Under the pieces are notes generated by a model. It was given only the letters and a program-made list of their open reading frames with translations, made no database searches and had not been told where the DNA came from. Position numbers and translations under genes: made by a program. Below are positions 46,372 through 51,062 of a DNA stretch of 64,000 bases, piece by piece. Location of the stretch: positions 1 to 64,000 of the forward strand of contig JADBWK010000090.1 of NCBI GenBank assembly GCA_020404895.1. The letters run 5' to 3'. How positions within the stretch are numbered: position 1 is the stretch's first letter; every line of letters starts with the position of its first letter. The DNA comes from Pseudanabaena sp. M085S1SP2A07QC (GTDB lineage Bacteria; Cyanobacteriota; Cyanobacteriia; Pseudanabaenales; Pseudanabaenaceae).

Positions 46372-47662
46372 ACCATGGAAATTTTCGCTATCCCGCATCC
46401 TCGCCATTTTTTTATTGGGCATTTCCTTCACTTTTGCTACCTATATTGGGGCAGGAGCAAACATCGCAACGACTGCTATCTTTGCTCAATCTAATCCTGA
46501 AGCGACAAATAATCCCACAACATCTGCACCTAATCAGTCAGTGGCAAACCCCATAGTTACTGATGCAGCAAAGCCCCCAGCAAACAAAGATGGTGCTGCT
46601 AATCCAACAAAGCCGCCAGTTAAAGATAACGTCAAAAAAACTACTACACCAGACGAAAACCCACTGGAGATAAATAATCTTGTTCCTTTTCCTTCTAATG
46701 TGGCTCTCCCTATAAATGTAGGTGTAGCCTTATTTGTAAATAACATCAGCAAAATCAACGAAGCTAGTAATACCTTTGAGAGTCAGTTTGATTTAAGGTA
46801 TAACTGGAAAGATCCTCGCTTAGCCTTCGATACTGGCGAGATGGGAACAAATCGTTTGGAGTTTGGACAAGAAGCTGCTGTAGCAAAATTAGCCACCATC
46901 TGGAATCCGCAGATTAAAATCACTAACATCATCGAGAAAGATGCGCAAATTGTTCCAGGCTTATTCATTCATTATGATGGTGAAGTGGAGCTAATCCAGC
47001 GTGTCAAGGCGACCTTCGAGACCAAATTAAATTTAGATGCTTTCCCCTTTGACTCCCAGTCTCTGCTCGTAGCTATGTTGTCATCTAAATACAATTCTAA
47101 TCAGATTGCATTGACGCAGGATCAGAATGATCTTAACGAATCAGGACTCGATCCAGACCTCAAAGTTAATGGATGGAAGCCACAGGGAATATCCTTTAAA
47201 ATGACACAGCTACGCGCTTGGAATGGCGCATTTCTCCGTCAGATTGAAGCTCGCGTGGGTATGAAACGTATCCCGAATGCGATTCTAGGCTCGATCTTCA
47301 CGCCATTCTTCTTGACTTTAATCGTACCGACAATCTTTACATTCTTCGCAAATGTAGAATTAGCTCCCCGTCTGGTCGCTTGGAGTGGCTCAATCTTGGC
47401 ATTGGTGGCGCTCACTTTCACATTCTCAGTGCGATACCCTTGGCTCGGCAGCAACAGCCTCGTGTCGCAGATATTCACCGCAGGACATGCCTTTCAGCTT
47501 ATCTCAGTACTCTTATCGATAACTCTGTTTAATCCAGATGTAGCTAAAAAGATGGATCGGTTCATCGTCGCCGAACTCGTCAGCTATCTACGGTGGCTAG
47601 TTCCTGTCGGCTTCTTGGGTGTCTTGATCACTAAGTCACTACTCACAGCTTTTGACTGGTAA
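46364..47662 (+). CDS. pentameric ligand-gated ion channel subunit (Cys-loop superfamily)
   Basis: PINVGVALFVNNISKINEASNTFESQFDLRYNWKDPRL; LNLDAFPFDSQSL; four TMs with M2 APRLVAWSGSILALVALTFTFSVRYP. Confidence 0.9.
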   Translation: MRRPWKFSLSRILAIFLLGISFTFATYIGAGANIATTAIFAQSNPEATNNPTTSAPNQSVANPIVTDAAKPPANKDGAANPTKPPVKDNVKKTTTPDENPLEINNLVPFPSNVALPINVGVALFVNNISKINEASNTFESQFDLRYNWKDPRLAFDTGEMGTNRLEFGQEAAVAKLATIWNPQIKITNIIEKDAQIVPGLFIHYDGEVELIQRVKATFETKLNLDAFPFDSQSLLVAMLSSKYNSNQIALTQDQNDLNESGLDPDLKVNGWKPQGISFKMTQLRAWNGAFLRQIEARVGMKRIPNAILGSIFTPFFLTLIVPTIFTFFANVELAPRLVAWSGSILALVALTFTFSVRYPWLGSNSLVSQIFTAGHAFQLISVLLSITLFNPDVAKKMDRFIVAELVSYLRWLVPVGFLGVLITKSLLTAFDW

Positions 47663-47728
47663 TGCGATCGCACCTTGGCGATCGCCTAGTTTAAATATCG
47701 GTAATAGAAGCGGTACTCCAATCCGCTT

Positions 47729-50700
47729 CTATTGGTTAGAATCTTTTTCTTGTGCAGCGATCGCTTGGTTAAGGTGCAATAGCTTTTCTAGTAGGTCATC
47801 ACTGTCGCTAAAGCCGTAAAGTTGCATTACGAGTTTGTCGAGCTTGGCATGGAGTTTATAGAGTTGGCTGGCGGGTTCGTGAAAGTATTCGTTATAAAGT
47901 TTGGTGATGCCCCATTGTTTGCTCTCCATCTGCTCAGTGCGATATTGATGTAGCTCTTGCATCGCGGCGCGGATTTGTTGGACAAGACCCTCACCCCCAG
48001 CCCCTCTCCCTAGGGGAGAGGGGAGAAACGAGGAGATTTGGGTTAGGGTTTCTTCTGGATAGTCGAGAATAGCTTGATTGGAGAAACGAATTACGTTAAA
48101 TCCGTGGGATTGCATCCATTGATCGCGATCGCCATCACGTTCTTGTTGATTTTGATGGATGTCGCCATCGAGTTCGATGACTAGCTTGGCTTCATGGCAG
48201 TAGAAATCTGCGATGTATTGCCCAATATTGTGCTGGCGGCGAAATTTTGCTTCAAATAAACGGCGATCGCGTAGACATTCCCATAATACTTTTTCCGCAG
48301 GAGTCTGCTTTTGGCGAAGTTCCCGCGCTCTCTGCAAAAGAACTTGAGGAATCTGTCGTTCTCTACCTGCAAGTTTATTGCCCTCACCCCTAGAAATCTG
48401 GGAGGCTTCACTTGCAAGTTTATTGCCCTCACCCCTGCCCCTCTCCCTAGGGGAGAGGGGTTCTGAGTCTTCTTGCTCCCCCTCTCCCCTAGGGAGAGGG
48501 GGCTGGGGGGTGAGGGCAGGAAATGGGAATGTCTCGAAGCAAGTTGTATTGGTATAGCGAGTATCGCCTTTAAGTGTTGAACTTTGAGCTTTTACCCATA
48601 AGCGATGTAATTTTGATGTGAGGATACCTAAGATATAAAAATCATCAGAAGCAATAACCATATTTGCCTCACAAGGCAAGATAGAAATATCTACAGGGGT
48701 AAACATTACCCACTTAGCTACTTTAGGTAGTGCAAAGTAGCATGATAAACCTTGTAAAGCTTTTCTCATTGCAGGGCAATGTTCTCCAAATCTCCACCAA
48801 TATATTCGTCTAGAATCTCGTCGATTTTTATCTCTTTCAGGTTTAACTTTTTCTCTAACTCTTTGCAAAGGTAATTTATATTCAGATGCTTGTTCGATTG
48901 ACATATCGTTAAAGTCAATCACCCAGTCTAGTTTTTCAAAAGGGTTAATTAATCCTTTCCCGTCTATCATTGGCTTAAGAACATCTGAATTTTTAGGATC
49001 TGTCTGTATCCATAACTGTGCTTCTTTTTCAGAAACTATAAATCCTTTACCCCTTAATCCACAGGATTCAAAGGATATTAATTTATTCTCTTTAAGCCTT
49101 ACTGCACTTGAAACAGAAATTTCAGACTTAAGAGATGAAGAAATAAATGGGACTTGTTTGCTATCAAGAAATAATTGCTTTTGAGGTTGTTTAGACCAGT
49201 TAACAATACTTACATGAACGGCTGCATCTCCAGACCATTCCTGAGTTGCGATCGCATCATGGATAATCCCCCCATTGCTAACAACATAATCTAAGCTTGC
49301 TTTTCTGCCTGAAACTTGAGCAATAGAGTTTGTACCAACTAAACCCGCTCTACCATTTTCAGATATTAAATCAGTTGTTTTTCTAAACCAAAAAACACAA
49401 AAGTCTGGTTGCCCTTGCACATCAGGAAATTGCTTATAAACTTTTTGAGCGTAGTCGTCACCAAATTCTTGTCTAAATTTTTTACCGCCCAAAAACGGCG
49501 GATTGCCAATAATTGCATCAGCCTCAAACCAATCAGAAAACAAAGCATCCTGACAAACAATATTTTGATCTAACGTATCCAAAGGTAACGCAGGTTCAAA
49601 TAGACCATGCTTATCGATCGCCACTTTCCGAGCGATCATCAAAGTTACCCTAGCCAACTCAACCGCAAACGGATTTATATCCATACCAAAAAACTGATTA
49701 GGTGTAACTAACCCCATTTGCACTTGCTGCGATTTTTGTCTAGAAGCCAACTTAGCAAGCAACATCACCTCGATCCGCTTTAGCTCTTGGTAAGCAAGAT
49801 ATAGGAAATTTCCAGACCCACAGGCAGGGTCTAAAACTCGATAACTCTGTAGTTCTAATTGCAAAATCTTAAGATCATCGATTTTATTAGCCGCCTCGAT
49901 CTTCTCTTCCCAATACCGAGTGATTGTCGGTACAACAATCTTCATGATGTCCACTTCAGACGTGAAGTGCATCCCCCTTGCATGACGTTCCTTAGAGTCT
50001 GAAGTCGCTTCAAAAATACTGCCAAAAATAGCAGGTCTAATTTTGCCCCAATTTTCCCTAGCCGCAGTATCTAAAATTTCTAACTCATTCCTTTCAAGGT
50101 CGATCGCATGAATCTCTGTGAATAAGCCCCCATTAAAATAATCAACACCTTTATAACGACCTGCTGGGGTAATCCCCTTATGGTTCATCTCTTGGAATAA
50201 ACCACCCAAAAGATCGTAACTACTTGCCCCACTAATACAATCTTGCACACAGGCAATAAACAAATCATCAGGTAATAGACCCCGATCCTCTGCAAACATG
50301 GCTAACACACATTGCAAAATAAACTTCTGCGCGATTAGCTCTGTAAAACCATCTTTAGCGGCTCTCGCCTTGAGTAACCTGTAAAGCTCACCCAAACGCT
50401 TAGCCGTGTTAATCGTCACCTCTACTTGGTTATTTCTAAATACAGGTGTTGTATTGACCGCAATCTCCATAAAGCGAAATGCACTAGACCGACTAGGCAA
50501 ATCAGCGATCGCAACAGTATCTACAGGCGTATCAACTTGCAGATTAAAGTCATAAATCCAAAACTCATCAAAATTGCACAGCACTACATATCTGGGGCGA
50601 TCGGGTACAAGATAAGTCCAATATTGAAAAGCTTGCGAATAATGCTTATTAAGATCCTCACCCCGCTTTTTCATCTCGATCAAAACGCCGCCCTTACCAT

Positions 50701-50914: not shown

Positions 50915-51002
50915 TTTTTAATCCCAATATCGTATGGACTAAATCTTAGATTTAGCTAAGGTATACCATACTACTGTCACACCAAGATTTAGGCTAGATA
51001 TT

Positions 51003-51062
51003 TTCTTAGGTGTCTTGATCACTAAGTCTCTACTCACAGCTTTCGACTGGTAATGCGATCGC
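51003..51062 (+). pseudogene. duplicated 3' end of the pLGIC gene (FLGVLITKSLLTAFDW-stop plus 9 nt)
   Basis: 57/60 identical to 47612..47671, same orientation, on the other side of the RM gene. Confidence 0.92.

What the first reader, a model, noticed from the sequence alone, without database searches (positions are those of the whole stretch)
47612..51062. pLGIC 3'-end duplicated on the far side of the RM gene; all three differences are synonymous
Seen: 47612-47671 and 51003-51062 are direct repeats, 57/60 identical. Both read FLGVLITKSLLTAFDW-stop plus ATGCGATCGC-like trailing sequence, and the differences (TTG/TTA, TCA/TCT, TTT/TTC) are all at third codon positions. A fresh target duplication would not show only synonymous changes, so copy 2 looks like the tail of a diverged allele or paralogue left when the RM gene arrived by recombination or when an intervening channel gene was deleted (inference).
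Basis: partly seen in the sequence, partly recalled or inferred. Interest (0 to 1): 0.8.

Follow-up and report, generated by a model that had tools for sequence, protein, structure and literature searches.

The report
Restriction gene inserted behind channel gene
A DNA-cutting defence gene sits behind an ion-channel gene, flanked by two copies of the channel gene's last 60 bases; relatives show that the repeat marks an old insertion that duplicated its target and later spread between strains by recombination, which is a known way for such genes to move, seen here in Pseudanabaena.

Summary
The repeat is real: 47612-47671 and 51003-51062 are 57/60 identical, with three synonymous differences, and these are the only two copies in the genome. 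Comparison with 25 congeners (Pseudanabaena) explains it. RM-free relatives carry one channel tail; in three (G017, G014, G004) the gene apt follows directly. Two relatives (Phormidium tenue FACHB-1050 and G003) carry the same MmeI-type restriction gene between channel gene and apt, with identical element ends, and on its far side a decayed (G003) or partly deleted (FACHB-1050) second tail. So the type IIG gene entered once, duplicating about 82 bp of target ('insertion with long target duplication', known for RM genes). In this genome the far copy is not decayed: it equals the intact tail of RM-free strain UWO311 (62/62), while copy 1's last difference and trailing sequence match the RM-bearing FACHB-1050. 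The best reading is later homologous recombination of the RM unit into an RM-free allele, at this 60-bp tail. It is a new example of a known kind. Noticed: the RM gene holds an in-frame DUF559 nuclease module that recurs inside unrelated restriction enzymes of the genus.

The parts
46364..47662 (+). 432-aa pentameric ligand-gated channel gene (Neur_chan_LBD); its 3' end is the insertion target
   Evidence: Pfam PF02931, E 2e-21; full or nearly full-length orthologues in 9 congeners
47612..47671 (+). copy 1: native channel tail plus HIP1 octamer
47612..47693 (+). left copy of the ~82-bp target (tail plus 3' untranslated part ending CTAGTTTA)
   Evidence: a similar untranslated stretch follows the tail in RM-free G009, and a second copy lies right of the RM gene in G012
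47694..51002 (.). inserted RM unit, about 3.3 kb, one gene, no recombinase
   Evidence: element ends shared by G000, G012, G003; absent in G017, G014, G004
47729..50914 (-). MmeI-like type IIG restriction enzyme-methyltransferase, 1061 aa
   Evidence: MmeI_N, MmeI_hel, MmeI_Mtase, MmeI_TRD; PADLOC REase_MTase_IIG, 1155 bits
48511..49474 (-). target-recognition part (aa 481-801), diverged from G012 (50-56% aa) although the rest is 94-100%
47987..48517 (-). in-frame DUF559 nuclease module (aa 800-976) bordered by C-rich palindromes; replaces a short linker of orthologues
51003..51062 (+). copy 2: right copy of the channel tail, identical to the intact tail of RM-free G008
51063..51136 (.). unique junction between copy 2 and the lipA flank; no match listed in the genus
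51137..51222 (.). dispersed inverted-repeat element next to lipA, many copies per genome; also next to lipA in G017
51226..52098 (-). lipA (lipoyl synthase), right neighbour in this genome only

Best explanation
The repeat pair marks the borders of a one-gene restriction-modification unit (about 3.3 kb, MmeI-like type IIG). In an ancestor of several Pseudanabaena lineages the unit inserted into the 3' end of the pLGIC gene and duplicated about 82 bp of target, so the channel gene kept an intact end and a dead copy of that end was left beyond the RM gene (shown by comparison). The dead copy decays where it stays put, as in G003. In the present genome the RM unit reached an RM-free channel allele by homologous recombination at this tail (inferred): as a linear piece with its flanks, or as a circle formed between the two tail copies. 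Copy 1 therefore ends in sequence shared with RM-bearing strains, and copy 2 is the recipient's still intact tail, which is why only synonymous differences separate them. A separate rearrangement just after copy 2 joined the locus to lipA instead of apt.
For: RM-free pLGIC-apt order in G017, G014, G004, and pLGIC-RM-apt in G012. G003 carries the RM gene beside apt with a decayed right copy: 15/60 differences, 5 non-synonymous codons including an early stop. G012's right copy keeps its head and the untranslated part, a 32-nt match to its left copy. Identical element end ...GGCTAGATATT|TTCTT in G000, G012, G003. Copy 2 is 62/62 to G008 and goes on GCGATCGCCT like G008 and G017, while copy 1 goes on GCGATCGC(A/G)CCTTGG like G012, and its third variant (TTT) is the G012 state. 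Identity to G012 rises from 83-85% in the channel genes to 92-98% in the RM unit outside the recognition part, 70/70 just after the channel gene.
Against: Only three genomes carry the occupied site, one per species, so donor and recipient are proxies. The claim about copy 2's origin rests on 60 bp and few informative sites. Copy 1's first two variants are not G012 states. RM-unit identity to G012 (92-98%) exceeds the lipA background (88%) only moderately, and a few 100-bp segments of the unit are at 83-88%.
Confidence: 0.72

Rival explanations
1. Target duplication, then change in place or local gene conversion between the copies, without an RM-free donor allele: the copies were equal recently and copy 1, still coding, picked up three synonymous changes while copy 2 picked up none.
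For: The origin as a target duplication is shared with the best explanation. Copy 1 is the one that departs from the G008 state.
Against: Unconstrained copy 2 should change faster than the constrained copy 1: if the 3 changes fell at random on about 60 free sites of copy 2 and 20 synonymous sites of copy 1, all three landing in copy 1 has a chance near 1.6% (own estimate). G003's right copy is heavily decayed. The sequence following each copy matches different lineages.
Confidence: 0.15
2. A second channel gene stood between the RM gene and lipA and was deleted, leaving only its tail.
For: A tail without its gene body is what such a deletion leaves; cassette integration next to a native gene followed by deletion would look the same.
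Against: The right copy starts at the same base after the RM unit in G003, G012 and here, which separate deletions would not give. No second tail elsewhere in the genome.
Confidence: 0.06
3. Assembly artefact: the right copy or its junction to lipA is a mis-join.
For: The channel-lipA neighbourhood is seen in no congener and a dispersed repeat lies at 51137-51222.
Against: The RM-to-tail junction is reproduced in two other genomes. The lipA-side repeat is next to lipA in G017 too, and 74 bp of unique sequence separates it from copy 2. The differences sit only at third positions.
Confidence: 0.05

Closest known systems
Insertion with long target duplication of RM genes (Nobusato et al. 2000, Gene 259:99, as described in PMC3031569 and PMC1643837)
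   Same: RM gene as sole cargo, long direct repeats of target sequence at both sides, single copy in the empty allele, no transposase
   Different: Reported from Helicobacter pylori strain comparison; here in a cyanobacterial genus across species. The right copy looks refreshed from another allele in one genome, is decayed in a second and partly deleted in a third
Integrative elements that replace the 3' end of their target gene (e.g. prophages and islands in tRNA genes or icd; from own knowledge)
   Same: Insertion at a gene's 3' end with a second copy of that end, so the gene stays intact; synonymous differences between the ends are typical
   Different: No integrase or att-type core here; the only gene is the RM enzyme. 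The native end is the left copy and the displaced copy is non-functional
MmeI family type IIG enzymes
   Same: N-terminal, helical spacer, methyltransferase and recognition domains
   Different: Carries an in-frame DUF559 module before its C-terminal part, shared with G012 and absent in seven compared orthologues

Membership tests
RM insertion with long target duplication | RM gene(s) form the insert | tested here: met
   Only the type IIG gene lies between the copies
RM insertion with long target duplication | Direct repeats of tens of bp or more, derived from the target, on both sides | tested here: met
   60 bp here, truncated from about 82 bp; remnants in G003 and G012
RM insertion with long target duplication | Empty allele in a relative with one copy of the target | tested here: met
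   G017, G014, G004: one tail, then apt
RM insertion with long target duplication | No transposase or integrase in the unit | tested here: met
   ORF list of the unit
MmeI-like type IIG restriction enzyme | MmeI domain order | tested here: met
   PF20464, PF20465, PF20473, PF20466 in order
MmeI-like type IIG restriction enzyme | Cleavage and methylation activity | not testable with these tools
   needs assay
Site-specific integrative element | Encoded integrase | tested here: not met
   None in 47694-51002

The most novel reading that the evidence does not exclude
The RM unit is a composite of two mobile parts: a restriction gene that moves by target duplication and recombination, and inside it a DUF559 nuclease module, bordered by palindromic repeats, that inserts in frame into restriction and DNA-modification genes of several unrelated families in Pseudanabaena and may act like a homing nuclease without splicing.
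Probability: 0.35. Interest if true: 0.65.

Novelty: new member of a known kind. Interest (0 to 1): 0.42.

Why it matters
It gives a clear case, with empty, occupied, decayed and refreshed alleles in one genus, of a restriction gene flanked by its own target duplication. It also shows that the second copy can reveal when the gene last changed strains. It explains a puzzling synonymous-only repeat without invoking selection on the second copy.

Tried and rejected
Long flanking direct repeats at the RM orthologues of G018, G005, G001, G019, G021: none at the seed used; G022 has a 22-bp pair not followed up; the G015 locus was too short for the test. The exact element-end pattern in viral contigs: none. 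The RM region in plasmids: no record covers most of it; only DUF559, methylase and dispersed-repeat pieces match. An intact second channel paralogue: none. A first script for the tail table timed out and was replaced. The Furuta 2010 paper is not held, so prior work is cited through PMC3031569 and PMC1643837. The win-G003 flank count was out of register and is not used.

Full report
Observation. The direct repeat at 47612-47671 and 51003-51062 is present, 57/60 identical, with three differences that are synonymous in the channel frame. Shuffled sequence never exceeded 33/60. No third copy exists in the 4.8-Mb assembly. Copy 1 is the real end of a 432-aa pentameric ligand-gated channel gene (PF02931). 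Copy 2 lies 88 bp beyond the start of a 1061-aa MmeI-like type IIG restriction enzyme on the other strand.

What relatives show. The genome belongs to Pseudanabaena (named congeners). Of 25 congeners searched, nine carry a full or nearly full-length orthologue of the channel gene and two more carry remnants of it. Three (G017, G014, G004) have the order channel tail, short intergenic stretch, apt; in G008 apt lies 3.2 kb further on. No congener examined has lipA next to the channel gene. In G012 (Phormidium tenue FACHB-1050) the whole stretch from the upstream channel gene through the RM gene is collinear with the window, and apt follows the RM gene. In G003 the RM gene lies between the larger upstream channel gene and apt. 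G003 lacks the two genes in between, and its junction lies in a stretch that the end of the larger gene shares with the untranslated region of the small one.

The right copy is old. After the RM promoter all three genomes read GGCTAGATATT followed by TTCTT. In G003 what follows is a decayed channel tail: 15 of 60 bases differ from copy 2, 5 codons change the residue, one is a stop. It runs into untranslated sequence like that after the G017 tail, then apt. In G012 the first 12 bases and the untranslated part GCGATCGCGCCTTGGCGCGATCGCTTAATTTA remain, the latter matching the left copy, with the middle lost. The duplicated target is thus about 82 bp, 47612-47693, and the RM unit is about 47694-51002. 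[quoted passage not shown]).

Why only synonymous differences. Copy 2 here is not decayed. It equals the intact tail of RM-free Pseudanabaena sp. UWO311 over 62 bases. So it was part of a working channel gene until recently, or was copied from one. The two copies also continue differently: copy 1 into GCGATCGCACCTTGG, as in RM-bearing G012, and copy 2 into GCGATCGCCT, as in RM-free G008 and G017. The third variant site in copy 1 has the G012 base. The channel body itself is 96% identical to G008 and G017 and 83% to G012. In contrast the RM unit outside its recognition part is 92-98% identical to G012 in most segments, with 70 identical bases just after the channel gene. This is the pattern expected if an RM unit from a G012-like lineage recombined into an RM-free allele through the tail, giving left = recipient then donor, right = donor then recipient. 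That step is inferred; the earlier target duplication is shown by comparison.

The lipA junction. Copy 2 stops matching at the HIP1 octamer (51062-51064). Then come 72-74 unique bases with no listed match in the genus, and a dispersed inverted repeat that also flanks lipA in G017. This genome's apt is on another contig. A rearrangement here is the plain reading; a mis-join in unique sequence cannot be excluded without reads.

The restriction enzyme. Its recognition part differs strongly from G012 (50-56% aa) while the rest is 94-100%, so sequence specificity was probably exchanged, a common event in this class (own knowledge). An in-frame DUF559 module (aa 800-976) replaces a short linker present in orthologues. 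Across the genus 44 strong DUF559 matches were found, 25 inside ORFs of 500 aa or more. Twelve of those, plus the RM gene itself, were scanned with Pfam; all but one show restriction or DNA-methylation domains: type ISP, HsdR, MmeI-like at different positions, DUF1156 methylase, Eco57I-like. The flanking peptides are coded by C-rich, palindrome-containing repeats in the window's gene, and similar peptides flank the other modules. No paper found treats DUF559 as a mobile module, though the library is partial and only titles and abstracts of those hits were read.

Verdict. It is a good new example of a known mode of RM gene movement.

Noticed in passing
47987-48517; L179-L197, L229-L232: DUF559 nuclease modules bordered by repeat-coded peptides (LTPQPPLPRGEG, SPSPTGRGARGEG and similar) sit in frame inside restriction/modification enzymes of several unrelated families across the genus, at different positions.
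   Followed up: partly
48511-49474: The recognition part of the type IIG enzyme is 50-56% identical to G012 while the rest is 94-100%: probable exchange of specificity.
   Followed up: partly
L198, L088 (G003): G003 lost the dCache gene and the 432-aa channel gene; the larger channel gene now ends directly before the RM unit, joined in a stretch containing CTAGTTTAA.
   Followed up: partly
L071, L072 (G008, G017): The two closest channel relatives lack, at this place, the 773-aa gene (periplasmic-binding plus channel-like) that precedes the dCache and channel genes elsewhere.
   Followed up: no
51137-51222: Dispersed inverted-repeat element of about 85 bp, often many copies per genome in the genus.
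   Followed up: no
L016, L078 (G009); L013, L077 (G025): Channel genes with internal deletions: G009 keeps only the start of the dCache gene and the end of the channel gene; the G025 channel gene lacks the part between residues 294 and 365.
   Followed up: no
L091 (G022), 920-941 and 4170-4191: A 22-bp perfect direct repeat lies on both sides of a related RM gene, 3.25 kb apart; possibly another insertion with duplication.
   Followed up: no
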